From the NCBI GenBank assembly GCA_944990035.1, contig CALYLX010000114.1, positions 186,001 through 250,000 on the forward strand: a stretch of 64,000 nucleotides of DNA, given 5' to 3'. This DNA comes from Clitopilus passeckerianus (Eukaryota; Basidiomycota; Agaricomycetes; Agaricales; Entolomataceae). Position 1 is the first letter of the stretch; every line of letters starts with the position of its first letter. A program made the position numbers and the translations under genes. A model generated the notes under the pieces. That model was not told the DNA's origin, made no database searches, and saw only the letters and a program-made list of their open reading frames with translations. Shown piece by piece: positions 36,525 through 64,000 of this stretch.

Positions 36525-36532
36525 TATAAAAG
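36525..36532 (+). promoter_or_regulatory. TATA box of antisense gene 2
   Basis: TATAAAAG 66 bp before the ATG at 36591, the same layout as antisense gene 1. Confidence 0.55.
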
Positions 36533-36590
36533 CTTCGTCTCTTTGCTCAGTTTACTTTCATTGGTTGAGCTTCCGCTCCCTTCTCTTACT

Positions 36591-38018
36591 ATGAGTGTCC
36601 CAGGTTTCATTCGCGAACTGAATGATTCTATCGCTGCCTTTAATCGTCCTGGACTCACTACCGACGATGGTCGTTACTATCTAAAGAAATTCGACGATTG
36701 GTGGAAGGTATAATTCCTTTCTTTGCATATTTCAACGCGTACTCATTGATTAATTCTAATCCATTAGAATAGCGGCATCGCTACTTTTAGCCCCTCTACT
36801 ATTCGTTCCGAGCCAGCTCTGATGGACGTGTTTTCGCGTATAACTGCTAGTCTCCGGATTCTTTGCGGTCATCCGCACCGTTTACGATCTACTCAATGGG
36901 ACCAAGTCCAGGATCTATTGGTTATGCTTGGTATTCCGACGCCGTTTCGCCGTCCACTTAATCCTTCGGTAAGCTTTTACGATCTTTGGGAACCCGACAA
37001 TTGGCTAACAGAATGGCTCGAACAGCCCCTTGTAAGCTTTCGATGTTAACTTTTCGATCCTTTCCTCCCATTCACTTTTTAATGCGCAGGTCTCCGGCGC
37101 TCCTCGTTCTCGATCCAAGGCTGCAACTCCCCCGCGTACTTTCCGTCCTAAACCGAACTCTTCTAAGACCGCCACCGATTCTTCTGGAGATACAATCATG
37201 TCTGATTCATCCAAGGTGCGTCCTACTTTGTTCTTCTTTATTCTATCTTCGATCTTAAGGCTGATTAGAAGCACTGGTATCCCGTTGATCGTTACGTTCA
37301 AGCTCGTGACCACGTACGATACTGCGCACGAACTAGAGAGTCACCAAATGCCGTCCAACTTTTCCGGCTTGAGGATTTCGGCGAACGCGGATTTCGCCTC
37401 TCCTGCTTATTATGCCGTATGTCCTCCTTTTCACTTCTAGCTTCGTTTTCTTTTCTAAACCTCTTTTCTCCATCTTAGTCGACACATGGCTGGCAGGAGG
37501 CATCGTACCCCCTGGTATCTGCTACGTCGCCAGTGCACCGACCAGTATCCCCAGTTTTCAAGGGCAAGAAGCGGCTGAGGAGTCCGTCCCCGTTGCCGAA
37601 TCACAGGTACTCGAGTCCTCCGGTGGTGGAGAATCCTCTTCAACGACGGAAGGTTCAATTGCCTCCGTTTCCGCTGGCCTTTCCGGACTCGCGGTATCTT
37701 CTGGATAGTACGCTGTCTTTTCTTTTTCAATTTTGCCCGTTCTTTCTTTACCGATGATTTTGCTTCTTAGGTTCTCATCAATCCGTTCACAATCCGGCTA
37801 CTGTTCAACTCGTTCGTCAAGCTCGCCATGTTACTCAAGCTCTTCCGCATGGCGACGAATCTTCCTTACGCGCCTCCGAAGGCTCTCTCCGCGCCCGAAT
37901 CATCACTTTAACTCACGAACTTTATTTCCTTCTTCAAGCTCGCGACATCTGGTGCGACGAACTGAAGAAGTTACAAGTCAGACTCGAGGACCTTTCGGGC
38001 TCTTCTGACAGTAACTGA
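36591..38018 (+). CDS. Antisense accessory protein 2 of the retrotransposon (spliced, unknown)
   Basis: A plus-strand multi-exon gene opposite to pol. Exon 1 is 36591-36707 (MSVPGFIRELNDSIAAFNRP...), donor GTATAA. Exon 2 runs from about 36770 to 37030 (NSGIATFSPSTIRS...WLTEWLEQPL), donor GTAAGC. Exon 3 starts after an AG near 37089 (VSGAPRSRSKAATPP...SDSSK), donor GTGCGT. Exon 4 is about 37269-37416, donor GTATGT. Exon 5 is about 37479-37708, Ser/Pro/Lys/Arg-rich. The last exon, about 37771-38018, ends in a coiled-coil-like helix (ELYFLLQARDIWCDELKKL...) and TGA. Phases from exon 1 to 3 join cleanly; the phase around exons 4-5 is unresolved. The basic, low-complexity middle and helical C-terminus suggest nucleic-acid binding or oligomerisation, but that is inference. 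The 3' end stops about 100 bp short of the pol stop (convergent). Confidence 0.5.
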
Positions 38019-38116
38019 ATTGGTAGTCCGTTTCTTATTCCTATCTCATGTACTTGTGCCCTTTAGTAGGCCGTATTCCAGCGCATGTATGTACTTGTAT
38101 TCCATTAGATTTCGCG

Positions 38117-41100
38117 CTATTCAATGTTATCAATGTCATCTTCGATGTGACGTATTTCTTCTATTACTGCTTCCTGATCTTCGTGAGCTGTCAAAGGTAC
38201 TTTATCGAAAATTAGATCGTGTTCTTGATCTTCCCTGGGTAGCCGTTTCTTTAACGCCTCGAGGCTCTCAGCTGATATGTCGATCCAATCTATGATCTGT
38301 TGCGGTAACTCGACTTCTTCTCTGGGATAGTACGGAATTACTCTTGAAGCAGAGATCTGTTCCTGAAAGACACTTCCATCAAGTTCAGCCACTATGTATG
38401 CTCCACCAGCGCCTCTCGCGATCACTACCATTGGTCCAATGTACCTCGGCTTCATTTTACTGCTTAATGAACTCTCGACCGCTCGGTTCCTGACTAGAAC
38501 TAAACTTCTGGGTTTGAAGTCATAATCTCGAATCTTATGATGATTCTTCTTTTCATACTCTCGGACTCTCGCGATCTTTTCTTCTGTTACCCTTTCTCGA
38601 AGTTGATCTATGTGTATTTTGTGCTTTGCTAATGCACGTGCTCGATATCCGAGTAAATCTCCGGTGCTAAGGGCACCTTCTGGATACTCCACCAGCCACG
38701 TTGCTTCTATTAGATCCAACGGTAATACTGGATGTGCACCTGTGGTTGCGAAAAAGGGTGAGCACCCTAAACCTTTCTTGATTGTCATTCGTTCTGCCCA
38801 TAATACGTGAGGGTAGAACCAAAACCATTTCTTCGCGTTTCCTTCTGTAGCTTTGTATAACGCTTGTCGAGTATCCCAATGCATTCTTTCGACTTTCCCG
38901 TTCGCTTGTGAATTGTAAGGAGAGATTCTTATCCCTCTAATTCCGTATTTATTTTTGAGGTAATTCACCGCGGCTTTGAACACCGGTCCGTTATCTGTTA
39001 CTATGTTCTGAATGCATCCCCATCTGCAAATGATGTCTTCAAACAACCATTCCGCTACGGTCTTCGCCGTTTCATTTCTTAAAGGCCGGCCCTCCGGCCA
39101 TGAAGTAAGTGAATCCCTTCCTTGTACAATATATTTGCATCCGTTGGATTTCTCGCTCATATGCATGGTGTCACAATGTAGCGTTTGAAATAGTGACGGC
39201 GTATGCGTTACGATCGGAGGTATTTTAATTAACATCTTCTGTCGCTCTTGACAGAGGTGACACGTTCTGACGTACCAGCTAATGTCGCCTTCCATTTCAG
39301 GCCACCAGAATCTAGCCGCAATTAATTCTTTCGTTGCCCAGAATCCCTTATGTGCAAGACTGTCATGAGCAGCTCTCATAATGAACATCCTGTGGGCTTT
39401 ATCTATCACTAATTTGTGTTGAGAATTGAGACCTCTTCTGAAGAATCTATCATTCTTGTCGATTCCGAAGTGACTCGCGGCCCGTTTAAACTGATCAAAT
39501 TGCCGGTTATCTAGATCTTCCGGCCTGTATTTCGGGTCTTTATGCCATCTTTTGAATAACGGCAATCTTTCATCCATAATTTTTGCTTGTTTCGATCTAT
39601 GCTCTTCTACATAGTGTTCTCTTCTTTCAGGATCGTATCTCATCTCTAAATCCGGGATTACCGGTAAGTTCATTAATTGCGTCACTATTTCATTTGACGG
39701 GCTTCTCTTGTCAATCAAAGTTCGCATCTTCTGCTTCTCAAGAGACGCCCAATCTCGTGCCTTGTCTAGATCTCCGTGGAATTCTTTCCAAACTTCGTCA
39801 TGCGACATGTAATATCCTCCTCTGGTGTCGATTTCATCTCGGAATTCTTCGAGATCTAACGGAATTCTTTCCTCCGCTCCGTCAACTTCTTCATCTAACT
39901 CTGGATGTTCATAGAACATTGGTTCTACCGTTTCTCCTTCGTCATCCGAGTCTACTGGGTCTATTTCCTCATCATCTGGGTGCGACGGTCTTCTTGATAA
40001 TCCGTCAGGCGCTGCGTGATTCTTTGCTGGAATGTGCCTTAACGTGAAGTGGTACATTCTGACAGCCGCGATCCATCTATTAATGGTCGCGTTCGGTCCT
40101 AAGTCCGGATGTTCTAACATTCCTTTCAGGTATTTCGCGTCCGTTTCAATGACTAACTTCCGGCATCCTATTAACCATAGTTTACAGTCATTTAACGCTC
40201 GATATAGACCAAAAAGTTCGCGTTTCGGTTGAGAGAACCTTGCTTCTCTAGGATTCATCGTGATGGATCCAAATCTCGCTATTCTGCGTTTTATTTCAAG
40301 GTGAGGATGTTCTTGTGAAATGGTATAGCCTACCGCCTTGTAGGACGTATCCACTGCTAAAACAACCTCGGTATCCAGGTCATAATCGATTGGTACTAAT
40401 GCTGGAGCCTTTCTTAAGGTGTCCTTGAGCATCTGCATCGATTCTTTCTGTTCTTGTCCCCATTCAAATGGTATGTCCTTCCTCTTTAATCGATTTATTG
40501 GGTCTGCGATCTTCGCAAAGTCTTTAATAAACACTCTGAAGACTCCGATTGTCCCTAGGAACGCATTTACATCGTGAAGGTTCTCGCATGCCGGCCATCT
40601 GGTGATGATTCCAACTCTATCGACTTCAGGCTTTCTTCCCTCGTAAGTGCAGCGATGTCCTACCACTACTATCTCCTCGGCACACAAAACAGATTTCGTC
40701 CCCGAAAACGTCCCACCGCAATATCTCATTCTTTGCAACACCCTACCGACATTCTGTAAATGTTCCCATACGAATCTTCGAACTCCAGTATTCTCTGGAA
40801 TCATTTCATATGTTCCATCTGGTAGTTCGTATCTTGTTTTAGGACCTTTCACCCCTACGTCATCGATATACGGCTTCGTTATTGCTGGTATTTCATCCTT
40901 TAGAATGCAAGTGACATCATCGTGAAATATAGGTACGGAATTTGTCCATCCCATCGGGAGAGTCACTAATCTTAAAGCCCCGAACGGCGTTTGAAACGTC
41001 GTGTAATCTCTAGATTTCGAATCTAAGATTCTTTCGTCATATCCTACGTACAGATCAAACATTCCCCCGCACGCTCTTCCTGCAAACTCGTTTGCAAGTT

Positions 41101-42064
41101 CCTCGGTTGCTGGTGGAAGTCCCGAATGTGCTATAGTCACCTTATTCAAGGGTTCGAGACTATGTACCAACCTTAAACTTTTTCCATCCTTCTTCAACAC
41201 ACAAAACCATTGTGAGCGGTACGATGAATTCGAAGGTTCGTATACTCCTGCATCAATCTTCTTTTTGATGATATTGCACACTTCATTGTAGATCCCCGGC
41301 GGTATCGGAATATTTCTCAATACCCAAGGTACGTGCTCAATAACTGGGATTTTGACAGGTGGAAAGAAGTCTTCTCTGAACTTTCCCCGTTCAGACTCAT
41401 CCCACGCGAATGCGTCATGATAATCCATCATTATATTGTGAATAAGTTTCCTTTCTTCTGGTAAGAGGAAGTCTCCCTTATGCGCTTTATTAATGATTTC
41501 CATTCTTTCTTTAGTGTATCTCCCCGTCGGTTCGAAGTCCACGGGTTTAGTTTTCATTTTCGGCATACCTTTTAAAGGGTCCCCTTCGATCTTCCTTTCA
41601 ATACGGAATTCTTCTGGTAAGGATCCTAAAACTGGCCTTACTTTCTTCGCTACAGGTTTATACTTTTTCGTAACAAAGTTCGATCTCATCGGTGGTCTCT
41701 TCGACCTTGGTAGGTTCGCATATTTCGTCTCATTGCTCACTGACTTAGGTTTCTTAGGAGATTCACTCTGGGATTCAGGCTGAGATTGTATATTCGAGAA
41801 GGACTCGTTCACTTCTGCTACTTTACATAGGTAAGTGTCTAACGTGAGTTTCTCTTCATCTGTTATCTTCATTTGACTGAGTCCGGCAGCCAGGTACAAG
41901 TCCCTGATCTCCTCCTTCCGTTCCTTTTTAGTATTCCCTTCGGTCATTGGTGAGTATCCTGTGATTAGTATCCTCCCCTGATCATCTTCTACCACAGTGA
42001 CAGCCACCTCTCCTTGATCTTCGATCAACTCCTCGAGGTTCACTGAAAATCCTTCTTTTCCGGA
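38117..42064 (-). CDS. pol: Pol: reverse transcriptase, RNase H, integrase
   Basis: About 1310 residues with no stop. Counted from codon 42043, reverse transcriptase spans about 250-420 with catalytic YIDD in KPYIDDVGVKG. RNase H spans about 570-690 with acidic residues in LAVDTS, KRELFGL and ETDAKYL. The integrase zinc module is HDSLAHKG...CHLC. The integrase catalytic triad has Asp in LHCDTM, Asp in VTDNGP and Glu in GKVERM, and a C-terminal GPY/F module reads KPRYIGPMVVI. No chromodomain is seen. There is no ATG at its start. The frame opens at 42064 and overlaps the protease ORF by 25 nt, so it is probably made by -1 frameshifting at GGATTTT (42046-42052). Catalytic residues all look intact. 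Confidence 0.93.
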   Translation of the reverse strand, partial: SGKEGFSVNLEELIEDQGEVAVTVVEDDQGRILITGYSPMTEGNTKKERKEEIRDLYLAAGLSQMKITDEEKLTLDTYLCKVAEVNESFSNIQSQPESQSESPKKPKSVSNETKYANLPRSKRPPMRSNFVTKKYKPVAKKVRPVLGSLPEEFRIERKIEGDPLKGMPKMKTKPVDFEPTGRYTKERMEIINKAHKGDFLLPEERKLIHNIMMDYHDAFAWDESERGKFREDFFPPVKIPVIEHVPWVLRNIPIPPGIYNEVCNIIKKKIDAGVYEPSNSSYRSQWFCVLKKDGKSLRLVHSLEPLNKVTIAHSGLPPATEELANEFAGRACGGMFDLYVGYDERILDSKSRDYTTFQTPFGALRLVTLPMGWTNSVPIFHDDVTCILKDEIPAITKPYIDDVGVKGPKTRYELPDGTYEMIPENTGVRRFVWEHLQNVGRVLQRMRYCGGTFSGTKSVLCAEEIVVVGHRCTYEGRKPEVDRVGIITRWPACENLHDVNAFLGTIGVFRVFIKDFAKIADPINRLKRKDIPFEWGQEQKESMQMLKDTLRKAPALVPIDYDLDTEVVLAVDTSYKAVGYTISQEHPHLEIKRRIARFGSITMNPREARFSQPKRELFGLYRALNDCKLWLIGCRKLVIETDAKYLKGMLEHPDLGPNATINRWIAAVRMYHFTLRHIPAKNHAAPDGLSRRPSHPDDEEIDPVDSDDEGETVEPMFYEHPELDEEVDGAEERIPLDLEEFRDEIDTRGGYYMSHDEVWKEFHGDLDKARDWASLEKQKMRTLIDKRSPSNEIVTQLMNLPVIPDLEMRYDPERREHYVEEHRSKQAKIMDERLPLFKRWHKDPKYRPEDLDNRQFDQFKRAASHFGIDKNDRFFRRGLNSQHKLVIDKAHRMFIMRAAHDSLAHKGFWATKELIAARFWWPEMEGDISWYVRTCHLCQERQKMLIKIPPIVTHTPSLFQTLHCDTMHMSEKSNGCKYIVQGRDSLTSWPEGRPLRNETAKTVAEWLFEDIICRWGCIQNIVTDNGPVFKAAVNYLKNKYGIRGIRISPYNSQANGKVERMHWDTRQALYKATEGNAKKWFWFYPHVLWAERMTIKKGLGCSPFFATTGAHPVLPLDLIEATWLVEYPEGALSTGDLLGYRARALAKHKIHIDQLRERVTEEKIARVREYEKKNHHKIRDYDFKPRSLVLVRNRAVESSLSSKMKPRYIGPMVVIARGAGGAYIVAELDGSVFQEQISASRVIPYYPREEVELPQQIIDWIDISAESLEALKKRLPREDQEHDLIFDKVPLTAHEDQEAVIEEIRHIEDDIDNIE

Positions 42065-43155
42065 TCACCGCCGGCTTTCGATTGTGGCATTGCTCCTCTT
42101 GGGAACGTGTGGCACATCGCTCTCCTTCCGGTATTCGGGCATTTGATGGTAAGCATCATGTTTCCATTTCCGAAGTTTTGATATCCACTTTCCGTTACCG
42201 CGTCAAACGGTCTTCCTAACAAAACACGGTACGCTGCCGAGTTTATGATGTGGACTTGAAGGTAGATCGTAATGTTTTCAAATTTGAAAGGTACGTTCCT
42301 TGCGAGACCGAGTGTTCTTTCGATCTGCTTGTTTGCTGACTGCATGTGTATACAGACATCTGGATCCCAGTTCAACTCCATTTCTTCGGCAACCTCCCTC
42401 GCCATCGACACAATTTGCGATCCTCCATCAAGAATACACTCCTCTGCTTTTACGTTGTTGATCGTCGGCCATACGGCCCTCAAATTATGTGAATCCGCTG
42501 CCGCTACAATCACTTCCGGTCTCTTTCCGGTCGGAAATATCTCGAGAAACTGGGATACCGGATCTGGAATTATAATCTTCGTTTGTCCCGTCTTCGGTTC
42601 CTGAATTCTCATAGGTTTGTAACTCGACTCAATCTTTTCTAGTTGTACTAATGATTGTACCGGGTTCTCTTGTGCGAAGTTTTGCCAGTACTTGTCTTCT
42701 TCCTCACTGAAGCCTTCTAGATATTCTAACACTATTTTTACTTTTTCCGATACTTTCTTCCTGGTGAGTCTATTCTTTAGTTCATCTCTCGTATTCCTAC
42801 TCATTGCTAACCAATCTCCGATGGTCATCCCTTCTATAGGTGCCTCTAAGATTGCTTCTACCGCTTTAGCGTGACTTCCGAACTTTTCTTCGATATCTGA
42901 CGTATATTTGACAGGTAATTCATCATTAATCTCGGCGAACCGGACTGTCCTGTCAGCTTCCTTCGGCTTCTTCGGAATTGCCGGTTCGATAGGGGACACA
43001 TCCTTGAACGGCAGTTCGTATTTGGTTGGTTCTGCTCTATTTTCGATGCTTCCCCGCACAGCTGACTTCTGTGCTTCTTTTTCTTTCTTCTCGAACGCTC
43101 CGTCCTTCTTTTTCTGTCGATCATTACTTGGGAATTGCTTCTCTGGTAATTTCAT
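42040..43155 (-). CDS. Retropepsin-like protease ORF (PR)
   Basis: 371 aa from its first ATG (43155); the frame is open a further 100 nt upstream and overlaps the end of the gag extension. The protease region is toward the C-terminus: ILDGGSQIVSM carries the active-site position and YRVLLGRPFD is the typical second conserved retropepsin block. The active site reads DGG rather than the usual DS/TG, a noteworthy change seen directly in the sequence. The N-terminal two thirds is Lys/Glu-rich. PR is placed in its own frame between gag and pol, so it is probably expressed by -1 frameshifting at GGATTTC (43248-43254). Confidence 0.8.
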   Translation of the reverse strand: MKLPEKQFPSNDRQKKKDGAFEKKEKEAQKSAVRGSIENRAEPTKYELPFKDVSPIEPAIPKKPKEADRTVRFAEINDELPVKYTSDIEEKFGSHAKAVEAILEAPIEGMTIGDWLAMSRNTRDELKNRLTRKKVSEKVKIVLEYLEGFSEEEDKYWQNFAQENPVQSLVQLEKIESSYKPMRIQEPKTGQTKIIIPDPVSQFLEIFPTGKRPEVIVAAADSHNLRAVWPTINNVKAEECILDGGSQIVSMAREVAEEMELNWDPDVCIHMQSANKQIERTLGLARNVPFKFENITIYLQVHIINSAAYRVLLGRPFDAVTESGYQNFGNGNMMLTIKCPNTGRRAMCHTFPRGAMPQSKAGGDPEKKDFQ

Positions 43156-43241
43156 TGAGTCTTCTTTCTCGGTACGGTCCTCCGGGTTTATACTAACACT
43201 CCTTCCGACTCTTGTAGAAGTGTCAGTTCCCTTCCTCGAAC

Positions 43242-43490
43242 CTAATTGAAATCCTGCCCCTCATTTTCTTTTGTTTTAGATCTCGTCGTCATCGCTGCCA
43301 CTAAGGCTTGCACCGAATTAGTGAGCTGCGACATGTCTTTTGACATGTCCTTTCTCCATTCATCAAAGCTATTCTGATTCGCCGGTTGATTGACGTTTGC
43401 CGATGGTGCCTGTTGCATCATGGGTGCCTGTTGGCTTTGGGAATTCTGGTACGATGGCCCCGGATTGTAATACTGTTGTTGGGGCATATT
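43242..43490 (-). CDS. Gag C-terminal extension after in-frame TAG
   Basis: In the same frame as gag, directly after its TAG (43491-43493), 82 further codons remain open. They are Gln/Asn-rich (MPQQQYYNPGPSYQ...) then helical and basic (MTTRSKTKE), ending at TAG 43242-43244. The conserved composition and frame suggest either stop readthrough or a CAG-to-TAG change within one gag gene. Confidence 0.7.
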   Translation of the reverse strand, partial: NMPQQQYYNPGPSYQNSQSQQAPMMQQAPSANVNQPANQNSFDEWRKDMSKDMSQLTNSVQALVAAMTTRSKTKENEGQDFN

Positions 43491-44897
43491 CTACTGTCCC
43501 TGAGGTACGTATGTCCCTGCTTGTTGGTACACTTGTCCGACTTGGTCTTCGTATCCCCATTGATCATCTCTTAGAACCATTTGATAGACTGCATTATGTT
43601 CGTTTGCGTAATGTGCCGCGTAATTCTGATTCTGAAATCCGATGTGTACATCGAATCTTCTCTTAAGACTTCCGTCAGAGGGGCTTCCAGGAATCCCTCT
43701 ACCATCTGGTAATACAGGGTGTCCTGCTTCGTTGACTTTAATCAGACCTCTCTTAACATAGTCTTCTCGAGCGAAGCAGTGGACTTGGATATGTCCGAAG
43801 GCACCACAGAAATGACATTGTGGACTCATTCCATTGCCCTGATTTCCGTTATTATTACTTGGTCCGGACTGTTGTCCCTGAGTCATTCTGGGTTGACCCT
43901 GATTATTCGTGGTCATAAGTCCTAACCTCCGATTAACGTCTACTATTTGTGATTCGAAAGACGTGAATCTCTGGTCTTGTGTAGCTTTGAGGCTCTGAAT
44001 ATCGCTCTTATTTTCTTTCATAGTATCTCTCAGGCCGTCTAATTTCGACTCCAAACTCGATAGATCAATGTTCTTCGGTTCGCGTTTAACTCCTCCGATC
44101 GATCCACTAGCTCGGTTAACTGGATATCCTCTGTCATTATCTTCTTCTTCTAACGTGATGGTAGACGCGATAGATCTAGCTTCTTCAAGAACTTCATTCA
44201 TTTCTAGGTCTTCTTGCCAATTCTTGCCAGGTCTTCCTCCGTTCCTCACAGCTCTTTGAATCCTTAAATTGTCTAATAATTCTTCTCTGAATGACGTTGT
44301 TAAAGTGGCTAAGATTAATTTCACTATCTCGCGCATAAGGATTTTTCCTTGTTCTTTAAGTTTCTGTGCTTCTGCAGCGAATTTCCTGCTAAAGGCCGCT
44401 AAGATGACTTCGTCATCTCGACTGATTCCCGCGTATTCTTTTCGGATAGCATCGAGTCGTTTCCTCGATCCTTCTTGTTGCATAGCTATTTCTGGATATA
44501 AACCCTTTATTATCTCCTTGAACTTCGGCCAACTAATATTCTTATTCGAAATATACGGTTGCCATTGTTCTTCTGTTTCAACGTCAGTATATTGTCCGGC
44601 CCAGCCTTTTCTTGCGCTAGCCCCCATTATTCCAGCTTTTTCAAACATCTGGTCTAATGTCCGGAAGTATCTCGGTAATTCTTTAGCGTTATCAGGATCG
44701 AATTTTGGAGCTTCCTTGCCACGTGGAGAAGGTACTGGTACTTTCCCTTCATCCGTCTCATCAGGGTCTTCTCCATCTGGAGTAGAAGTACGCGAATTCT
44801 CATGTGAATTGTGGTTCGAAATCACAGGCGGCACTCCTCCTGGAATATTTGTCCCTCCTGGATTCTGTTCCTGCGTGTTATCGCCTGCTTGTGACAT
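43491..44897 (-). CDS. gag: Gag-like nucleocapsid protein
   Basis: 468 aa from ATG 44897. The first about 60 residues are acidic and Pro-rich. Next is a capsid-like helical part (about residues 60-260), a coiled-coil-like segment, and a single zinc knuckle CHFCGAFGHIQVHC (CX2CX4HX4C) near residue 360, the expected RNA-binding site of a Gypsy Gag. The same frame stays open upstream for 178 more codons (to a stop at 45432-45434, about 30 nt from the PBS) with protein-like composition but no ATG. The true N-terminus is therefore unresolved: it starts either at 44897 or further up from a non-ATG or lost ATG codon. Confidence 0.85.
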   Translation of the reverse strand: MSQAGDNTQEQNPGGTNIPGGVPPVISNHNSHENSRTSTPDGEDPDETDEGKVPVPSPRGKEAPKFDPDNAKELPRYFRTLDQMFEKAGIMGASARKGWAGQYTDVETEEQWQPYISNKNISWPKFKEIIKGLYPEIAMQQEGSRKRLDAIRKEYAGISRDDEVILAAFSRKFAAEAQKLKEQGKILMREIVKLILATLTTSFREELLDNLRIQRAVRNGGRPGKNWQEDLEMNEVLEEARSIASTITLEEEDNDRGYPVNRASGSIGGVKREPKNIDLSSLESKLDGLRDTMKENKSDIQSLKATQDQRFTSFESQIVDVNRRLGLMTTNNQGQPRMTQGQQSGPSNNNGNQGNGMSPQCHFCGAFGHIQVHCFAREDYVKRGLIKVNEAGHPVLPDGRGIPGSPSDGSLKRRFDVHIGFQNQNYAAHYANEHNAVYQMVLRDDQWGYEDQVGQVYQQAGTYVPQGQ

Positions 44898-45431
44898 TAG
44901 AAGTTGTCTTAATCCTTCAATTTCTATTCGAGATTCTGCGTCCTGATAAAAAGTCTCGTCTTCTGGTTCTGATGGGTCAGGGACGGATTTATTCGGTTCC
45001 GGTGCTTCTTCCTGATCGGATTCAAGGTGTTCTACCGATCTTTGGGGTTCTTCTGGATCAGACGCGTAGTCTTCTGGAACTCTTTGTGAAGTTCTCTCTG
45101 GAATGATTTTTGGTAGATTTTTCTTTCGAGATTGCTGACTATCGATTATCTGTCTAGCTTCTTCCCAGCCGAGTACTGAAGTCGATTTCAGGCTTCTAGT
45201 GTTCCTAGTTTCAAGTGGTCTTTTCTGAATGCTGCTACTAGCCGTTACTTCAGGTGATCGACTAATTATAGATTTCTTTCTAGAATCTGCTACTGATTCC
45301 GCAGTCTTATTCGGGTTTATGTTCTTGGCACTCGATGAGACTGTGGGTTCAGTTACAGATGCGCGTTTCTTAGCAATGTTTATGGTATTATAACCCTTCT
45401 CGTAGGTTGTTCGAGTACCTTCGAGTCGGAA
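44898..45431 (-). other. ATG-less in-frame extension upstream of gag
   Basis: 178 sense codons in the gag frame without a stop or an ATG. Composition is Lys/Arg/Ser-rich then Glu/Pro/Asp-rich, grading into the gag start. The codon series ACC ATA AAC ATT GCT AAG AAA near 45380 looks like a possible lost start (ATA for ATG). Confidence 0.6.
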
Positions 45432-45465
45432 TTACAAAGTTTAGAAGGTTGCGATGAGATCAGAA

Positions 45466-45485
45466 CCCCCTCGCGGTGGGCTCCA
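45466..45485 (-). other. Primer-binding site
   Basis: Three bases inside the 5' LTR the minus strand reads TGGAGCCCACCGCGAGGGGG, complementary to a tRNA 3' end finishing in CCA. The long GC-rich match is typical. I could not assign the tRNA isoacceptor. Confidence 0.75.
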
Positions 45486-45488
45486 ATA

Positions 45489-46072
45489 TGAGAGACTGAC
45501 TGGCGCGGAATGCGTAAAGGAAGCGAAACCCGGATCAAAGATCCGACAACACAACACAGACACACACACACGGCCGACAGGCGAGTTCTCGGTATGTGCT
45601 AGGGAGCACTTCACTCAGGGCAACGAGGTTTTAGATAGTTGTGGTATTGGGTTGGTTTGTAGGTAGTAGATTTGCTTTAATAGATGAATTGGGCTCGAAA
45701 ACGATGTTTATTCACAAATTAAATGTTTATTCGGTGGATGGTAACCCTTTGGTAACCGAGATGATCAATAAAACTATCGACGGTGCCTCCTGTTAACCTT
45801 ATGGTCGTCTTCGAGAGCACGTCGTAGGGTATCGAAAATCTGACTCTACGCTGCTGTAAATACTGCGTTTATATACTGTAGCTAAAGGACCTCGGTGTCC
45901 TCTCCGTGTTCGCGTTCTGAGCTCTGTCTACCGGACCTTCGTGTGGATTGATTGACGTTTCCCATCAATTCCTGGTCCGCTTCATCGGGATTCCTCGCGC
46001 ACCGACCTTTCTTCTTGATTTCTTCACTGCGTCTCGTTCTCCTCGATGACATCAATGATTACGGTCATATCA
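45489..46072 (-). repeat. 5' LTR (right copy)
   Basis: 584 bp, TG...CA, identical to 33383-33966 except at 46035. TATATAAA at 45868-45875 on minus. Confidence 0.95.
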
Positions 46073-47257
46073 GCACATTGGTGTTTCGCCTGCTTCATTG
46101 TGTGAGTTGACGTCGATATCTCTGCGTTCAAGCGAAAGCTTCACAACGCTGACATTTCCGTGTTGAGAGCCCAGGAAAAGCAAGGATTGTCCCTGCTCGG
46201 TACTCGCAGTCCGCAAAATCGCCCGGTACTCGTATTTAGGTACCTGCTTCAAGGATTGAATGGCCGCCGACTCCTGTGCGTTCACCGTGGAGACTACGGG
46301 GGCAGAAGCCTCTCCGAGAAGCCTTCCAGTAAACCAGTCAACCGCGTGAGGAATAATCTGATAAGGCATCACAATCAGGGGTCTATTCCTTCGCAAAAAG
46401 ATCGACAGCTACGAACCTGATCTTTGATCGCAGCGCCAAGTTGGTAGTCGTCTTCAATCTCGTCTCTGATCTGAGCCAACACGTCCTGTTCTCCTTCCTC
46501 TTCAACTTCGGCAATTTCTTCCTTCGTCAGAGGATCGAAGAAGTGGAAGAACGAAACTTGTAAATTTAACGGTCAGGTCGCTTGGGTATAAGAAAAACCC
46601 CTCAACTTACAGCGGAGGCTTCCATCGACGCGCTCAGTCAAATTCATCCCTTTCTTCCACTTGATTTTCGTTCCTATGGCGGACACGTACACCAATTCCC
46701 CTAAGCATCCGGTGCTCTTTCCGTTGTACTGGTAGGTCTTGGACAGTACATCATTCTCGAAGTAGTTGTTGGGGCCAAACTCGAATAGCAATCTGTAGCC
46801 CGGCCCAGGGATTGGGTCTGAGTCACTGAGATATTCGACGCGTATGTTGGTGAGCTGAGTGAGTACGTCCTGATCGTGATCTTCGATCAGATCGTAGAAA
46901 GCAGGGTGGTTGTTCAGAACGGTGCGCCAGAAGTTCGGAACAGGAGTATCATCTGTTGCTGAGGTAGGATACCGACGCGTCCCGGAGACGAGACTCTCCA
47001 GCCGGGCGAGAATCGGTCTCTGTAGATCATGATACTAGGTGTGGCTCAGACTTGTGTCGCAAAGTTATGAGTTCCACCAAGCTCACCTTCTTTTCAACTT
47101 CCATGCATTCAAGTTTGCACTTGATCTGAAGCTCGTTTAACTCTCTCTGGAGCCTCTTGAGCTCATCTACGACCAATCGGGTGTTTTCAGGTAACTTGTT
47201 GTTATAATCGGTACTTAATTTGATCAAGTTCCGCACCGTATGCTGAGCTTCATCCAT
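46073..47257 (-). pseudogene. NAP-ankyrin gene D, 5' part (split by retrotransposon)
   Basis: Three complete exons plus the start of the fourth, all intact. Exon 1 is 47087-47257 (ATG; MDEAQ..., NAP dimerisation helix LPENTRLVVDELKRLQRELN). Exon 2 is 46611-47034 (YHDLQRPILARLESL, then the NAP core PNFWRTVLNNHPAF, IEDHDQDVLTQL, FGPNNYFENDVLSKTY, IKWKKGMNL). Exon 3 is 46417-46556 (SFFHFFDPLTKEE and an acidic-helical end). Exon 4 starts at 46357 (IIPHAVDWFTG hinge, first ankyrin repeat) and is cut at 46073 by the Ty3/Gypsy element. It continues at 32518-33382. Confidence 0.88.
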
Positions 47258-53497: not shown

Positions 53498-55220
53498 CTA
53501 CCGCTGTGCCATGCTTCGGTCATTTGATCTCCTAGAGACTATTGCGGCTTCTAGCAATGCTGCGATCACTTGATGACCCTGTTGTACTGCAACAGAGTAT
53601 GGTGTTGAACCTCGCCGTCCAAGATTGAGGTCGACCCCATCTACGCCAATTAGCACCTTGACGACTTCGGAATGTCCATTCTGGGCTGCAATGTAGAGTG
53701 GGGTAGCGCCGTCCTTCCGGCGTGAATTGACGTCGATGCCAGCCGCACCAACCAGTAGCTTGGCGACTTCAGCATGTCCACTCCAGGCTGCGATGTATAA
53801 TGGGGTGGCGCCGGTGTTTGAGGGTGAATTGAGGTCGACGCTAGGTGTGCCTATCAACAGCTTGACGACTTCGACGTTTCCATTAGAGGCTGCGGTGTAG
53901 AGCGGGGTTCTACCATCGCTCGAGGGAGAGTTGACATTAATGCCCGCTGCGCCAATCAGTAGCTTGACGACGTTGGCGTGACCATTCCGGGCAGCGGACA
54001 AGAGGGGTGTCCTGCCTTTACCATCCTGGGAGTTGATATCAATGTCTCCACGTTCAAGTAGGAGCTTTATGACGCCAATATGTCCGTGCTCAGCCCCTAG
54101 GGAAAGTAAGGAACGTCCCAGCTCAGGGTTCGCATCCTTCAAGATCGCACTGTATTCGTATTTAGGCCCGCGTTTCGGGGCTCGAAAGCCTGTTGCCTTC
54201 TGTGGGTTCACCGTCGAAGTTACGGCTGAACAAGCCTCCTCGAGAAGTCTTCCGGTAAACCAGTCAACTGCACGAGGAAGAATCTAACAGGCCAAATCGT
54301 GGGTATAATTTTTGCAAAGCATCTTCGGCACCGACGAACCTGGTCTTTGAGAACAGCACCAAATTCGAAGTCGTCTTCAATCTCGTCTTTAAGAGCAACC
54401 AACCACTCCTTGTCCTCTTCCTCTTCCAGTTCGATCATTTCTTCCTTCGTCACAGGGTCAAAAAAGTGGAAGAACGAAACTAGTACACTTGACGGTTAAA
54501 GGATTTCGGTATACAAAAGCCCCTCAACTTACAGCGAAGATTGTCATCGTCACGCTGAGTCAAGCACATCCCTTTCTTCCATTCTATCTTCGTTCCGATG
54601 GCGGACCGATAAACGAAGTCTCCCGAGCTCCCCGATCTTTCGCTGTCGAACTGGTAGGTTTTGGAGAGTAGCTGATTCTCGAAGTAGTCGTTGGGAAGAA
54701 ATTCGAATATTAATCTGTATCCTGGGCCCGATATCAGATCCAAACTGCTGAGATATTCGACGCGTATGTTGGTGAGTCGCTTGAGAACGTCCCGATCGTG
54801 TTCTTCAATTAGGTCGCGAAAAGCGGGATGATTGTTCAGAACCCTGAACCAAAAGTTGGGGACGCCAGTAGGAGTGTCTCCTCCAGCGTTTTCTCCAGAT
54901 TTCTCTGCACTGGGTTCCCCACCCGATTCCTGCAGCTTCCCAAAGGCGAGATCTTGCAGCCTTTCACGGAGCGGTCTTTGGAGGTCATGGTACTATAAAC
55001 GGATCGGGTCAGATCGCCGCACCGATATTCCGATCATGCGATGTCTCACCTTCTTTTCAATTTCCAAGCATTCCAGTTTACACTGAACTTGGAGATCATT
55101 CAACGCTTTCTGAACCTCCTTCATATCTTGCACGATCAAACGGGTGGTTTCGGGCAACTTGGTGATATAATCCGTGCTGGATTTGACCAAGCCCAGCACC
55201 GCGTCCTGCGCCTCTTCCAT
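53498..55220 (-). CDS. NAP domain-ankyrin repeat fusion protein C (intact)
   Basis: Four exons: 55050-55220, 54533-54992, 54340-54479, 53498-54283. The joined frame is 1557 nt, 518 aa, with GT-AG introns in the same places as copies B and D. Residues 1-57 are the NAP-type dimerisation helix (LPETTRLIVQDMKEVQKALN...LEIEKK), running on into YHDLQRPLRERLQDL, which corresponds to the ERKYAALYQPL region of NAP1. Residues about 95-255 are the NAP core: VPNFWFRVLNNHPAF, IEEHDRDVLKRL, FLPNDYFENQLLSKTY, IEWKKGMCL, SFFHFFDPVTKEE and DDFEFGAVL. The acidic NAP tail is absent; instead ILPRAVDWFTGRLLEEA leads into six ankyrin repeats (GRTPL..AA.NGH.EVVKLLIGA). The likely role combines histone or basic-protein binding with ankyrin recognition; the target is unknown. 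Confidence 0.88.
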
Positions 55221-55239
55221 TAACTGGTAAGTATGAGTT

Positions 55240-55660
55240 CCTGGTTCAAATGGGAGGAGATGTCTATATCGTTGTGACGAGAGACGTGGTGTTCATTTGG
55301 CATGTCTACATCAAAGCCGTTGACCTCTACCCCTTGTTCTTCGGAATCTTCGGTCTCTAAAAGTACACGCCGAAAGGAGAATAAATATCGGGGGCGGCGG
55401 TTGATCGCCAAGAAATCAATCTACGGGATGTTGATCATGCACTGATCAAATCTCCTCTACCTTCTTCCAAACAAAGCAGCACCTGTAGTGGGAAATTATT
55501 TTCTCTTGAACTCTCGGGGCTACGACCCGCCCGTATAGTTGAAAATACCTCATGAAATGGATTCGCCTCGAATATCAGCTATACGACCTTTCATGAATCT
55601 TTTCCCCGTATTTTAAGGCCGCGGTTCGACGATCACATTAGGGCGGCATGTTGTTGAACT
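55240..55660. other. Upstream region of gene C
   Basis: Holds a decayed open stretch matching the 5' leader of copies B and D (NEHHVSRHNDIDIS-like, compare HEHHHVSRRNRVDAS near 47330). This is conserved leader or 5' UTR sequence; I see no separate gene. Confidence 0.4.
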
Positions 55661-55672
55661 GCGAACATGACC

Positions 55673-55751
55673 TGCTGGTGTAATGGTAAACACCTCCCGA
55701 GGGTGTGGGGTCTGTTATCAGGAGGCGCCTCGTACGACTCGAGGACCAGCA
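55673..55751 (+). tRNA. tRNA-like gene, complete cloverleaf, odd anticodon loop
   Basis: TGCTGGT at the 5' end pairs 7 of 7 with ACCAGCA at the 3' end. The D arm is GTG TAATGGTAAA CAC, and the anticodon stem CCTCC/GGAGG encloses 23 nt instead of 7. The T arm is CCTCG-TACGACT-CGAGG, with TAC for the usual TTC. A functional anticodon cannot be assigned. Either an intron-containing tRNA gone bad or a tRNA-derived element. Relatives: 60543-60635, 25370-25494. Confidence 0.6.
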
Positions 55752-56089
55752 ATGGTTTAGATTGAACAGTCATACATTTTACGATTGCTCCCCTAGAGTT
55801 CTAAGCTTCGACATCCACCCACGAATGGCCACGTAAACCTCACTTCCAACGCAAGTAAAACGATAGAATTCAAATTGTCATTAAGCCGCCTCGAACTAGT
55901 ACAGGGGTCTCCTCTACACCCCATATCTCCTCAACTCGTCTCCAGCATCCAAGTCAAGTCGCCCTACACCAACGCCAACCCCCTCTCAATCATACCCCCT
56001 AACCTCCATACTCCCATCTCCGAGTCAACCATCATATGAAACCTCAATGCATATGCGGGACAGGCACCATCCTCTTCTACAAGCATTCA

Positions 56090-57400
56090 AATGGCGCCGT
56101 ATCGGAGTACACCCTAAGCGATTTTCTTGAAGATGAACTGGGCACGTTTGCGTGGGGAGAAACCGCATAAGTCGGCGAGGCCTTGTTTGGTTATTATTAT
56201 GTCGAACGAGTGTTCTGGAGGGGTGAGTCCGAGTTAGGATTGGGTACGATAGGGAAAGAGAAAGGGATGGGAGTAACGAACATACCAGTCTAATCTACAT
56301 ACGCAGGGAAAGGAGAAGGGATTATGCGCTGATTGCAATGGGTCCTAGGATCGGAATTAGTCAGTCGTCTATGAGACAAAATGTTCGTCAGCACCTCATC
56401 CACTGCCGACGAGGAAAGTAACGTACTCGAATAAAGATTTTCGAGCCTCATCGGAGAGACTTTGTACTGATCACAGTCCTGAAACTGGGTTTCCCCGAAT
56501 CGAGGCAGCGGAGGAACTTATCTATACAAAACCCAAGACAAAGCCGCAGATGATCAGCCCAACCGATCTCAAGGAGAAGTCAAGGAAGACCTAACCTGAA
56601 CCTTAGGATAAACCTCCGCATCCTCAAACGGGCGCTCCGCAAGGAATCCAAGAATGGAGTGCAAAGGATTTGGGTGGACAGCCGTTTAAGACCTCGGATG
56701 AGAGGAAGTCAATAAGGTGCGAGGCTATAGCGCAAGAGGTATCAGTCTGGAGGGGAAGGGTTAGAGATGGATTATTTTCGAGGCGAGCGACGCGGAAGGA
56801 CAACGGGAGGGGAAGAAACGGAGAGAGAAGGCAACAAATGCGAGATCCGAAATGAGAAGACGAACCTCGGGAGCATCCGTACTCGTGTGATCAGGTCTAT
56901 TGGATCCTGTACTAATCGCCACCGCCTTCGTTGGATTGACGGGACTTGACGGGATACAAATTCAGTGGCGAGGATAACGAGCTAAACACAGTGTTCGGAT
57001 TAGCACGTGTTTACTGTACGGAAGAGGAAAAAGGAAGGCGTACCTCAGGCAAGCGATTCAGAGAACGGAGCTCTGATACTTAGGATGTAGGTGTTGACTT
57101 TAGTGATGATTTTTTCGGCGGATTGTTGGCTCTCAGGTGCAGCTCCAACGGGGTCACCTGCGCAGCTCTGCAGTCAGAATTTGATCATGGATGCAGCACG
57201 ATGAGAAGAAGGGAACTCACCGAGACCACTCCCCTGTATCAGTAGCCACAATGATAGCTTAAGCAAGCAAATGGCAGGAAACTTGAGAACAGGATTATTG
57301 GTGACGTTTACGATCCGAACGTGGATTCGGCGCCTTGATTATCAGGTTGGTCAGCAATGGTCCCAAGTAGGCAAATACTTTGGCGTATAGCAAAGTGGTG
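56090..57400 (-). pseudogene. Acetyl-CoA hydrolase pseudogene, copy 1
   Basis: A decayed minus-strand copy of the gene at 16903-19583. The clearest match is 56150-56215 against the last exon (the part encoding [18 protein letters not shown]), with one base change making a stop. 57050-57165 matches the fourth exon ([22 protein letters not shown]), and 57230-57260 the third exon. Intron-type purine-rich tracts with minus GTACG donors lie between them, so the copy arose from genomic DNA, not mRNA. Frames are broken throughout. Confidence 0.85.
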
Positions 57401-58041
57401 TTGTGCGAAAGCGAGGAAGAAAAGCTAACATCGATCAGCTGCAACAGCTGTCGATGAACAGATACAGAAACTCGAATGGTTGAAGGATCGGTGATATAAA
57501 ATCAGAGGCAGTTTCATATTTCCATCGGTTATATAGAGTACCAGTGCCCACACGGAACAATGAGGCAATTTCTAGAGAACAACACGCGTCGTAGTGGAAG
57601 CAGTGTGGAAGCAGCGTCACGGTAGAAGTCGTTGCGACCAAAGCCAAGAAAGGCAATGCACTCTTTGGCTCTGTTAAGCCTCGAAGCTGCCATTCAGGTC
57701 AACTCACGTGATCAGCTTGATTCAGCCCTTACTTAGTTACTAATACTGGACAGTGGAGTCTGGACACTGTCCAAGGCAGTTATGGATAGAAGTGAGGCCT
57801 CGGGTTCTGGTTCGGGGAGTATTGCTAGAAGCCCGATCTCGGTCGACTACGACAGTCCCTCGTTGCGTATTACATTTTTTATGGCGTCCCTAGTATTCCA
57901 GTATCATACTTATGGTCCAATACTGTACTCTTGTTCCCAAGCTTGTTCCATACCAAATCGATTTTTATGGTATCCAAGCTATGTTAAACCCGCCCGGATG
58001 CTATATATAGAGAACATCTAGTGCAACCATTACATCATCCC

Positions 58042-60150
58042 CTACCGCCTTGCCATGGCGGATTCTAGCAACCTTGCAACAGTCTTATGACCTCGCTTTA
58101 CTGCGGCAGAGTATGGCGTCTGACCCGACAGTCCAAGGTTGAGGTCGATGCCATCTACACCAATCAGCAGCCTGACGACTCCGGTATGGCCAACATAGGC
58201 TGCAACATATAGTGGGGTGCTGCCGTCCTTGCACGGATAATTGACGTTAATGCCAGCTGCGCCAATCAGCAGCTTGACGACTTCGGCATGACCATGCTGG
58301 GCTGGACCGAAGAGCGGGGTTCTCCCATCCTTGAGTGGAATATTGACGTCGATGCCAGCTGCACCAATCAGCAGCTTGACGACTTCGGCATGTCCCTGCT
58401 GGGCTGCAATGAGGAGTGGGGTCCCGCCATATTGGTCGCGTAAATTAACATCAATACCAGCTACGCCAATCAGCAGCTTCACGACTTCGGCATGGCCACC
58501 AAAGGCTGCAACGAATAGTGGGGTTCTGTCGTCCTCTGACGGAGAATTGACATCGATGCTAGCTGCGCCAATCAGCTGCTTGATGACTGCTTGGTGACCT
58601 CTCTCGGCTGCAACGTAGAGCGGAGTTCTGCCGTCCTTCAACGGGGAATTGACATCGATGCCAGCTGCTCCAGTCAGCAACTTGATAACTTCAGGGTGAC
58701 CAACCTGGGCTGCGATGAAAAGCGGGGTAGCACCGTTGCTCTTGGGTGAGTTGACGTCGATGCCAGCTGCGCCGATCAGCGCCTTGACGACTTCGGCATG
58801 ACCATTTTTGGCTGTAATGTACAATGGGGTTCTGCTATAGTTGTCTGTTGAATTGACATTGATGCCAGCTGCGCGAATCAGCAGCTTGGCGACTTCGGCA
58901 TGACCGTTCTGAGCTGCCCAACAGAGGGGTGTTCTGCCTTCAGCATCTTGTGAGTCGAGATCGATATCTCCTCGTCCGAGTAAGAGCTTTACGACGCTAA
59001 TATGACCATGTTTAGCACCCACAAAAAGCAAGGAATGTGCCAGCTCAGTGCTCGCATCCCGCAAGATCGCTCTGTATCCGTATTTAGGCCCGCGTTTCGG
59101 GGCTCGAGAGCCTGTTGCTTTCTGTGTGTTCCTTGTGGCAGTTACGGGCGAACAAGCCTCTTCAAGAAGTCTTCCGGTGAACCAGTCAACTGCATGAGGC
59201 AGAATCTGATGGCCAAATCAATGCATCAGGGCTCCGATTCTTGCAAAGCATCATCTGGACGGACTAACCTGATCTTTGAGAATAGCGCCAAGTTGATAAT
59301 CATCCTCAAGCTCGTCTTGGGCAGCAACCAGCCATTCCTCATCCTCCTCCTCTTCAATTTCGGCGATTTCTTCTTTCGTCACAGGGTCAAAAAAGTGGAA
59401 GAACGAAACTAGTACACTTGATAATTAGGGGATTTAGGTACATAAAAAGCCCCGCGACTTACAGCGAAGGTTTTCATTGTCACGTTGAGTCAAACTCATT
59501 CCCTTCTTCCATTCTATTTTCGTTCCATTGGTGGATGCATAAACAAAGTCTCCCGAGCTCCCCATCCTTTTACTGGTGAACTGGTAGGTCTTGGAGAGTA
59601 CCTGGTTCTCGAAGTAGTCGTTGGGGAGAAACTCGAATAGTAATCTGTATCCTGGCCCTGGAGTCGGATCCGAACTGTTGAGATATTCGACGCGTACGTT
59701 GGCGAGTTGCTTGAGTACGTCCTCATCGTGTTCTTCAATCAGGTCACGAAAAGCAGGATGATTGTTCAGGACTGTGAACCAGAAGTTGGGAACGCCGGCA
59801 ATAGTATTCCCTTCAGCATTTCCTCGATATTCCCCAGCGCTGGCCACTCCACCCGATTGCTGAAGCTTCTCAGAGGTGAGATCTTGCAGCCTTTCGAAGA
59901 GCGGTCTTTGGAGTTCATGGTACTAGGAACAGATCGGATCAGATTCGCATCCCGATTTCACGATTGGCGCCTAGCTCACCTTCTTTTCGATTTCCAAGCA
60001 TTCAAGTTTACACTTGACCTGGAGATCATTCAACGCTTTCTGAATCTCCTGCAGATCCTGCACGATCAAACGGGTAGTTTCGGGCAACTTGGTGATATTA
60101 TCCGTGCTGGATTTGACCAAGCCCAGCACCATATGCTGTGCCTCTTCCAT
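58042..60150 (-). CDS. NAP domain-ankyrin repeat fusion protein B (intact)
   Basis: Four exons: 59980-60150 (ATG, MEEAQHMVLG...), 59463-59922, 59269-59408, 58042-59205. The joined frame is 1935 nt, 644 aa, all phases matching. The same NAP layout as copy C: helix LPETTRLIVQDLQEIQKALN, YHELQRPLFERLQDL, core VPNFWFTVLNNHPAF, EEHDEDVLKQL, FLPNDYFENQVLSKTY, IEWKKGMSL, FSFFHFFDPVTKEE. Then comes the hinge ILPHAVDWFTGRLLEEA and ten ankyrin repeats of 34 residues, the most in the array. Repeats 2-9 are very alike (GHAEVVKLLIGAAGIDVNSP), implying recent internal duplication or conversion. An in-frame stretch upstream (YHDLYTHRL) makes a slightly earlier start possible. Likely nuclear or cytosolic; no signal or membrane segment. 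Confidence 0.9.
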
Positions 60151-63422: not shown

Positions 63423-64000
63423 CTACCGCCTTGCCTTATACTGGGGATTTACTCTCCTAGAGATCATGGCGGACTCTAGCAACGTTGCGACATCTTTATG
63501 ACCTTGCTGTACTGCAATAGAGTGTGGAGTTGAACCTCGCCATCCAAGATTGAGGGCGATCCCGGCTACGCAAATCAGCAGCTTGACGACTTCGGAATGT
63601 CCATGAGCAGCTGCGATGCATAGTGGGGTTCCGCCGTTCCTGTCGGGTGAATTGACGTCGATGCCAGCTGCGCCAATCAGCAGCTTGACGACTTCAGAAT
63701 GTCCAATCTGGGCCGCAATGTGGAGTGGGGTTGCGCCGTGCTCCTCGGGTGAATTGACGTCGATGCCAGCTGCGCTAATTAGCAGCTTGACGACTTCGGG
63801 ATGACCATTAGCGGCTGCAATGAAGAGTGGGGTTCTGCCGTCCTTCAATGGAGAATTGACGTCGATGCCAGCTACGCCCATCAGCAGCTTGACGACTTCA
63901 GAATGTCCATTGGCGGCTGCGATGCATAGTGGGGTAGCATCGTCCATCTGGGATGGATTGACGTCGATGCCAGCTGCGCCAATCAGCAGCTTGACGACTT
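63423..64000 (-). CDS. NAP-ankyrin family member A, 3' part (runs off window)
   Basis: The ankyrin exon of a further paralogue, open from the window edge to the stop at 63423-63425. It shows about five and a half repeats (GRTPLFIAAANGHPEVVKLLISAAGIDVNSP and alike; the final one is STPHSIAVQQGHKDVATLLESA), then a short tail of about 11 residues. The upstream frame continues past the edge (VKLLIGAAGIDVN before DDATPL), so the apparent Met is internal. No lesion is seen in the visible part. The NAP portion should lie beyond 64000. Confidence 0.85.
   Translation of the reverse strand, partial: VVKLLIGAAGIDVNPSQMDDATPLCIAAANGHSEVVKLLMGVAGIDVNSPLKDGRTPLFIAAANGHPEVVKLLISAAGIDVNSPEEHGATPLHIAAQIGHSEVVKLLIGAAGIDVNSPDRNGGTPLCIAAAHGHSEVVKLLICVAGIALNLGWRGSTPHSIAVQQGHKDVATLLESAMISRRVNPQYKARR

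What the first reader, a model, noticed from the sequence alone, without database searches (positions are those of the whole stretch)
53498..60150. A gene family fusing a complete NAP (nucleosome assembly protein) domain to ankyrin repeats
Seen: in copies B and C (and D before insertion) four in-phase exons encode a NAP dimerisation helix, the full NAP core (PNFW..VLNNHPAF, EHD.DVLK.L, FE/FLPN.YFEN..LSKTY, IEWKKGM, SFFHFFDP) and then 6-10 ankyrin repeats. Known: NAP1/SET proteins are histone chaperones that end in an acidic tail. Here that tail is replaced by a hinge (ILPHAVDWFTGRLLEEA) and ankyrins. Inference: a histone-chaperone-like fold given a variable recognition array. I know of no described NAP-ankyrin system.
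Basis: partly seen in the sequence, partly recalled or inferred. Interest (0 to 1): 0.92.

Follow-up and report, generated by a model that had tools for sequence, protein, structure and literature searches.

The report
Histone-chaperone genes fused to ankyrin repeats
In a mushroom-type fungus, copies of an ordinary histone-carrier gene have had their tail replaced by a string of protein-binding repeats and have multiplied into a gene cluster, a combination that our database searches did not find elsewhere.

Summary
Copies B (518 aa) and C (644 aa) splice into a full NAP domain (Pfam E 6.7e-55, 2.8e-56) plus 6 and 10 ankyrin repeats. The last conserved NAP segment and the ankyrins share one open exon, so they are not separate genes. 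Sixteen such loci lie in this Agaricomycete's two-haplotype assembly: 9 intact, 1 doubtful, 6 broken. Intron positions and a tree show origin by duplication of NAP1.

Corrections: 'ILPHAVDWFTG' is conserved NAP core, not a new hinge; a disordered linker of about 25 residues follows. The importin-contacting beta-hairpin of Nap1 is gone in 10 of 10 copies aligned, while two of three acidic histone-contact positions are acidic in 10 of 10. The NAP part is under purifying selection. Repeat number varies (6 to 19), also between alleles, but I found no positive selection on the repeats.

Two searches of 5.8 billion proteins with these NAP domains found only plain NAP proteins (61) or nothing.

Function is inferred: a histone-binding NAP dimer aimed by its ankyrin array at a partner protein. 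A NACHT-less, receptor-like role is a live rival. I rate it a new variant of a known kind.

The parts
53498..55220 (-). Copy B, intact NAP-ankyrin gene, 4 exons (55220-55050, 54992-54533, 54479-54340, 54283-53498), 518 aa, 6 ankyrin repeats
   Evidence: splicing; Pfam; allele C13:118616 onward intact too
58042..60150 (-). Copy C, intact NAP-ankyrin gene, 4 exons (60150-59980, 59922-59463, 59408-59269, 59205-58042), 644 aa, 10 ankyrin repeats
   Evidence: splicing; Pfam; models of exon 4 and exon 2
59463..59922 (-). Exon 2 of C: end of the dimerisation helix and the NAP alpha/beta core
58042..59205 (-). Exon 4 of C: last NAP helix (ILPHAVDWFTGRLLEEA), disordered linker of about 25 aa, 10 ankyrin repeats in one open frame
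   Evidence: model pLDDT 86.3, pTM 0.81; residues 20-42 below 50; best PDB matches DARPins and ankyrins
63423..64000 (-). 3' part of copy E (intact, 585 aa; its other exons lie beyond the window up to C113:251349): ankyrin repeats
   Evidence: gene model; end computed from exon lengths
46073..47257 (-). Copy D, 5' part: NAP exons and the start of its ankyrin exon, up to the LTR element
   Evidence: NAP exon 2 Pfam E 1.3e-32
32518..33382 (-). Copy D, 3' part: rest of its ankyrin exon beyond the LTR element
   Evidence: C113:218713-219384, 58% identical to the ankyrins of C
33383..46072 (.). LTR retrotransposon (Gypsy-like RNase H and integrase zinc-finger matches) inserted in copy D; LTRs 33383-33966 and 45489-46072 differ at 1 of 584 positions, 4-base flanking repeat GCAC
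28583..29964 (-). Copy A, broken: remnant of NAP exon 2 (29964-29911), exon 3 (29857-29729), exon 4 with a frameshift after the linker, then ankyrins
25011..25250 (-). Remnant of NAP exons 3-4 (43% identical to C, 1 stop)
   Evidence: C113:211011-211250

Best explanation
These genes are duplicates of the fungus's NAP1 histone-chaperone gene in which the last exon was exchanged: after the conserved end of the NAP core it now encodes a flexible linker and an ankyrin array in place of the acidic tail. SHOWN by sequence: the fusion, one origin from NAP1, tandem spread, loss of the importin-contact hairpin, retention of two acidic histone-contact positions, purifying selection on the NAP part, repeat-number change. 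INFERRED: the NAP part still dimerises (full dimerisation helix) and still binds H2A-H2B; the two ankyrin arrays of a dimer bind one partner protein per copy; lacking the Kap114-type hairpin, the protein stays in the cytoplasm or enters the nucleus with its ankyrin-bound partner, so that histone binding is tied to, or sequestered away from, that partner. Different copies with different arrays serve different partners.
For: NAP domain complete. Introns 1 and 3 at the same position and phase as in the genome's NAP1, intron 2 with the same phase in the hairpin region. 11 NAP-ankyrin rows one clade, 98/95, inside the Agaricomycete NAP1 clade, 100/100. NAP dN/dS 0.10-0.44 in 45 of 45 pairs. Positions of yeast D201 and D205 acidic in 10 of 10; positions of E288, R290, Q292 absent in 9, 10, 10 of 10 (roles of these residues from passages of PMC11602657). 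Net charge of the NAP part -12 to -23 against -21 for the own NAP1 core. Ankyrin solenoid modelled with high confidence.
Against: Of 15 D/E columns conserved in 62 plain NAP1 rows, the 10 copies keep on average 0.45, against 0.70 for 43 hydrophobic columns (this includes tail and hairpin columns), so the fold is kept better than the acidic surface. The position of yeast E194 is acidic in only 2 of 10 (but it is R in the own NAP1 as well). Both acidic tails are gone. No histone-binding, expression or partner data exist. Six of 16 loci are broken, so part of the family is dispensable.
Confidence: 0.5

Rival explanations
1. Receptor-like rival: the family is a NACHT-less relative of the fungal NLR-type receptors. 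The ankyrin array senses a foreign or non-self protein and the NAP part is the dimerising output, or a bait copy of a histone chaperone that an intruder targets.
For: The nearest ankyrin arrays outside the family (42-46% identical) include C100, C152 and C40; in the 3 that I fetched an NPHP3_N (NACHT-like) match lies upstream (E 4.4e-13, 1.5e-4 below the cut-off, 3e-17). The genome is rich in NPHP3_N (150 matches among 150 scored of 585 candidates). Repeat number differs in 2 of 4 allele pairs (E/c13_88: 8 and 19; 168/c13_149: 7 and 10), copy C is missing from the other haplotype, many copies are broken. Repeat number change and positive selection are described for NLR ankyrins (passages of PMC4986451).
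Against: No NACHT or NB-ARC domain in B or C. Internal repeat identity 0.44-0.69, below the 85% that marks concerted NLR repeats (PMC4986451). pN/pS of the variable repeat positions 0.77, not above 1 (a crude test). In the 2 collinear allele pairs the ankyrin exon is at least as constrained as the NAP part (pN/pS 0.24 and 0.19 against 0.30 and 0.45). Haplotype divergence of the cluster is close to that of its surroundings.
Confidence: 0.27
2. The NAP part no longer binds histones and serves only as a dimerising, acidic scaffold that makes the ankyrin array bivalent.
For: Hydrophobic core kept better than the acidic columns (0.70 against 0.45); both acidic tails and the hairpin lost.
Against: Positions of D201 and D205 acidic in 10 of 10 and a neighbouring Thr has become Glu or Asp in 10 of 10; purifying selection over the whole NAP part; PMC11602657 reports that yeast Nap1 mutated at E194/D201/D205 still binds H2A-H2B at low nM, so these positions alone decide little either way.
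Confidence: 0.18
3. Gene-model error: NAP exons and ankyrin exon belong to two neighbouring genes.
For: No transcripts are available.
Against: Exon 4 begins with the conserved end of the NAP core and runs open into the ankyrins in 9 of 9 intact copies and in the doubtful one; the intron before it lies where NAP1 has its own intron; the NAP part is under purifying selection.
Confidence: 0.03

Closest known systems
NAP1 (nucleosome assembly protein 1) of yeast and fungi, PF00956
   Same: Whole NAP domain including the dimerisation helix, alpha/beta core and DWFTG end; introns 1 and 3 shared with the genome's own NAP1; two of three acidic H2A-H2B contact positions
   Different: No N-terminal or C-terminal acidic tail, no importin-contact beta-hairpin, ankyrin array instead of the tail, tandem family of 16 loci over two haplotypes; best plain relatives 38% identical
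SET / Vps75 / NRP branch of the NAP superfamily
   Different: Sequence matches NAP1 chains far better (phmmer E 5.4e-33 against 4.8e-18 for the best SET chain); no ankyrins
Fungal NLR-type proteins with ankyrin repeats (NACHT/NPHP3_N-ANK)
   Same: C-terminal ankyrin array with 34-residue period, repeat-number differences between alleles; nearest other arrays in the genome sit behind NPHP3_N matches in the 3 fetched
   Different: No NACHT/NB-ARC; NAP domain in its place; low internal repeat identity; no positive selection found
Plain ankyrin-array proteins and DARPins
   Same: Fold of exon 4
   Different: Joined to a NAP domain

Membership tests
NAP domain superfamily (PF00956) | Profile match above the curated cut-off over the whole domain | tested here: met
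   186.6 and 191.1 bits against 28.6, profile 3-265 of 266
NAP domain superfamily (PF00956) | NAP alpha/beta core fold | tested here: met
NAP1 histone chaperone (orthologue) | Closest relation to NAP1 within the superfamily | tested here: met
   PDB ranking, tree inside Agaricomycete NAP1, shared introns
NAP1 histone chaperone (orthologue) | Acidic C-terminal tail | tested here: not met
   Exon 4 continues into linker and ankyrins; tail columns empty in 10 of 10
NAP1 histone chaperone (orthologue) | Beta-hairpin that contacts importin (yeast E288, R290, Q292) | tested here: not met
   Absent in 9, 10 and 10 of 10 copies. Hence filed as a NAP1-derived variant, not as NAP1
NAP1 histone chaperone (orthologue) | Acidic histone-contact positions (yeast E194, D201, D205) | tested here: inconclusive
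   D201 and D205 positions acidic 10 of 10; E194 position acidic 2 of 10, R in the own NAP1
NAP1 histone chaperone (orthologue) | Binds H2A-H2B, forms dimers | not testable with these tools
   No assay; dimer was not modelled
Fungal NLR-type receptor | NACHT or NB-ARC nucleotide-binding domain | tested here: not met
   None in B or C at E 0.01 in Pfam-A
Fungal NLR-type receptor | C-terminal repeat array (ANK, TPR or WD) | tested here: met
   6 and 10 ankyrin repeats
Fungal NLR-type receptor | Highly alike internal repeats (over 85%) | tested here: not met
   Mean 0.44-0.69 in 10 copies; only some 10% of NLR ANK arrays meet it (PMC4986451), so it is no strict criterion
Fungal NLR-type receptor | Positive selection at repeat contact positions | tested here: inconclusive
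   pN/pS 0.77 in the variable group, 0.47 elsewhere; saturated pairs, no population data

The most novel reading that the evidence does not exclude
A new class of modular fungal recognition protein without a nucleotide-binding domain: a duplicated histone chaperone turned into the dimerising, histone-binding output of a set of ankyrin sensors, with copies gained, lost and re-sized in repeat number between the two nuclei of one dikaryon, acting in non-self or parasite recognition at the level of chromatin or histone supply.
Probability: 0.2. Interest if true: 0.87.

Novelty: new variant of a known kind. Interest (0 to 1): 0.6.

Why it matters
NAP1 proteins end in acidic tails and carry a hairpin that takes them into the nucleus with their importin. 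Here a lineage has swapped the tail for an ankyrin array, lost the hairpin and multiplied. If the NAP part still holds histones, this is a histone chaperone whose target can be changed by exchanging repeats, a natural counterpart of fusing a DARPin to a chaperone. If it is receptor-like, it is a way to build recognition proteins in fungi without the NACHT module. Both readings can be tested with one purified protein and one set of strain sequences. The cluster also shows how such a fusion arose: a new last exon behind an old NAP1 intron.

Tried and rejected
Mating-type locus: the cluster differs between haplotypes, so I looked for STE3 receptors and homeodomain genes in the own genome; matches lie on C66, C69, C106, C154, C155 and C111, C19, C139, none on C113 or C13. 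Rejected.

Unusually high haplotype divergence at the cluster: an early note of mine said so. Three flanking spots of C13 are 88-91% identical to C113 and the NAP1 locus is 90%, so 80-92% in the cluster is near the background; a neighbouring stretch is 95-97%. Withdrawn as an argument; gene content and repeat number do differ.

New nuclear-import signal in the linker (PKRGPK in B and C): not kept in the other copies. Rejected as a family feature.

Co-duplicated partner gene between B, C and E: a block at 56972-57723 recurs at 62176-62937 (66%), but no one reading frame is favoured and no Pfam match was found in 4 small frames.

Positive selection on repeats: not seen. The test left out repeats: 65 of about 88 matched my pattern (first, last and irregular repeats dropped), and 10 of these 65 from near-identical alleles were left out of the pool of 55.

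Rfam: 0 matches in the window at gathering scores. Literature: searches (4 papers; 0; 0; 1) gave no paper whose title or listed abstract describes a NAP-ankyrin protein; I saw listings only. This library lacks most subscription journals.

Limits of the protein searches: candidates must share 5-residue words and lie in a length range (about 354-1127 aa, 528-1680 aa). One search returned no hit at all, not even plain NAP1, most of which are too short for its range; it is therefore evidence only against long relatives. One search (own NAP1) listed 120 of 2590 hits.
Full report
WHAT WAS CHECKED. The window is G000:C113:186001-250000 of a 64.8 Mb assembly in 160 contigs. The genome's own NAP1 protein is 76% identical at best to NAP1 of Agaricales such as Tricholomella and Lyophyllum, so it is an Agaricomycete, probably Agaricales, whose proteins are not in the database. 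Contig C13 is the other haplotype of C113 in reverse orientation.

WHY IT IS ONE GENE. It sits at the start of exon 4, and that exon runs open through the ankyrins to the stop in 9 of 9 intact copies and in the doubtful one. A separate ankyrin gene would therefore truncate the NAP domain.

THE FAMILY. NAP and protein searches of the own genome (both lower bounds) give 16 NAP-ankyrin loci: 8 on C113, 6 on C13, 1 each on C40 and C97, plus 2 remnants. Intact by my models: C113 112, 168, B, C, E; C13 88, 118, 149, 215. In 4 of these 9 the start codon lies a few codons upstream of the MEEA position. Doubtful: C113 120, which needs a GC donor at intron 1. Broken: A, D, c13_127, c13_203, c40_134, c97_50. 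D is split by a 12.7 kb Gypsy-like LTR element whose LTRs differ at 1 of 584 positions. Copy C has no counterpart on C13: flanks that lie 5.5 kb apart on C113 lie under 0.8 kb apart on C13, and no further C13 copy was listed genome-wide; C13:94001-115000 was not seen apart from that.

ORIGIN. The own NAP1 lies at C98 and, as an allele 90% identical in DNA, at C99. A further, distant NAP-family match lies at C111:1306221. NAP1 introns 1 and 3 are at the same positions and phases as in the fusion genes; intron 2 has the same phase, in the hairpin region where the alignment is open because the fusion genes lost that stretch. In a tree of 41 rows the 11 fusion rows form one clade (98/95) inside the Agaricomycete NAP1 clade (100/100), nearest to the own NAP1 with weak support (83/76). 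The tool warned of long branches, C97 above all. The C97 copy, about 40% identical, has the same exon order with ankyrins, so the fusion predates its split from the cluster.

WHAT CHANGED IN THE NAP PART. PMC11602657 (passages) names yeast Nap1 E288, R290 and Q292 in the beta-hairpin as contacts to the importin Kap114, needed for binding, and E194, D201, D205 as contacts to H2A-H2B. I placed these by the alignments (motif E-x-R-x-Q; TALEN...D...D). In the 10 copies the hairpin is shrunk to a short turn: the three positions are absent in 9, 10 and 10 of 10. D201 is D in 10, D205 is E in 10, E194 is acidic in 2 of 10 but R in the own NAP1 too, and the Thr before the D205 position is E or D in 10. 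Against this, over 100 columns conserved in 62 plain NAP1 rows the copies keep 0.70 of hydrophobic but 0.45 of D/E columns, tails and hairpin included. Net charge of the NAP part is -12 to -23, own NAP1 core -21. The same paper reports that the triple histone-site mutant still binds H2A-H2B at low nM, so these positions do not prove binding.

SELECTION. NAP dN/dS is 0.10-0.44 in 45 pairs of 10 copies; many pairs have dS above 1. Repeats per copy by register: B 6, c13_118 6, c113_120 6, c113_168 7, E 8, c113_112 8, c13_215 8, C 10, c13_149 10, c13_88 19. Allele pairs: B/118 6 and 6, 112/215 8 and 8, 168/149 7 and 10, E/88 8 and 19. Repeat positions 1, 2, 4, 8, 9, 12, 13, 16, 25, 33, 34 vary most; their like in ankyrins faces ligands (recalled; PMC4986451 passages place variable NLR-ANK sites on the concave face). 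Yet pN/pS is 0.77 for positions 1, 2, 4, 8, 9, 12, 13 and 0.47 for the rest, nowhere near a clear excess. In B/118 the differences are NAP 8 N and 7 S, ankyrin exon 10 N and 15 S; in 112/215 NAP 25.5 N and 15.5 S, ankyrin exon 4 N and 7 S. So the array changes by repeat number, not by fast amino-acid change between these alleles.

ANKYRIN SOURCE. Outside the family the nearest arrays are 42-46% identical. In the three fetched, an NPHP3_N match lies upstream on the same strand, one of them below the Pfam cut-off; I did not splice those genes. Ankyrins resemble each other generally, so this is a hint at an NLR-type donor, no more.

ELSEWHERE. (NAP part of C, proteins of about 354-1127 aa): 61 hits among 1890 candidates, all with PF00956 only, best 38% identical. 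(NAP part of c13_88, about 528-1680 aa): 1670 candidates, no hit at E 0.001; 120 listed of 2590, all with PF00956 only. No NAP-ankyrin protein appeared. Paper searches listed none (listings seen only).

MECHANISM. Shown: fusion, single origin, loss of hairpin and tails, kept core, purifying selection, spread and decay of copies. Inferred: dimer, histone binding, one partner per array, location set by the partner. I put 0.5 on the aimed histone-binding reading, 0.27 on a receptor-like reading, 0.18 on a pure scaffold.

VERDICT. Real, well defined and not found elsewhere; both modules are known, so a new variant of a known kind. Interest 0.6, higher if histone binding or recognition is shown.

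Noticed in passing
window 48247-48921 (-): Open frame with a NucA/NucB-type DNase match (PF14040, E 8.5e-16) just upstream of copy D.
   Followed up: no
window 33383-46072: Young Gypsy-like LTR retrotransposon, about 12.7 kb, LTRs 583 of 584 identical, inserted in the ankyrin exon of copy D.
   Followed up: partly
window 7629-7732, 10943-11046, 15653-15756 and neighbouring repeats: Three diverged tandem copies of a few kb without a Pfam match in the frames tried; nature unknown.
   Followed up: partly
window 16861-18012 (+): Exons of an acetyl-CoA hydrolase/transferase (PF02550, E 2.3e-7 and 1.6e-5).
   Followed up: no
window 56972-57723 and 62176-62937: Block of about 750 nt shared at 66% between the spaces beside the tandem genes; no favoured reading frame.
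   Followed up: partly
own genome, C100, C126 and others: Very large sets of ankyrin arrays (1642 first-look candidates for Ank_2) and NPHP3_N domains (585 candidates): a genome rich in NLR-type genes.
   Followed up: partly
L013 (C13:88501 onward): Copy c13_88 carries 19 ankyrin repeats where its allele E carries 8.
   Followed up: yes
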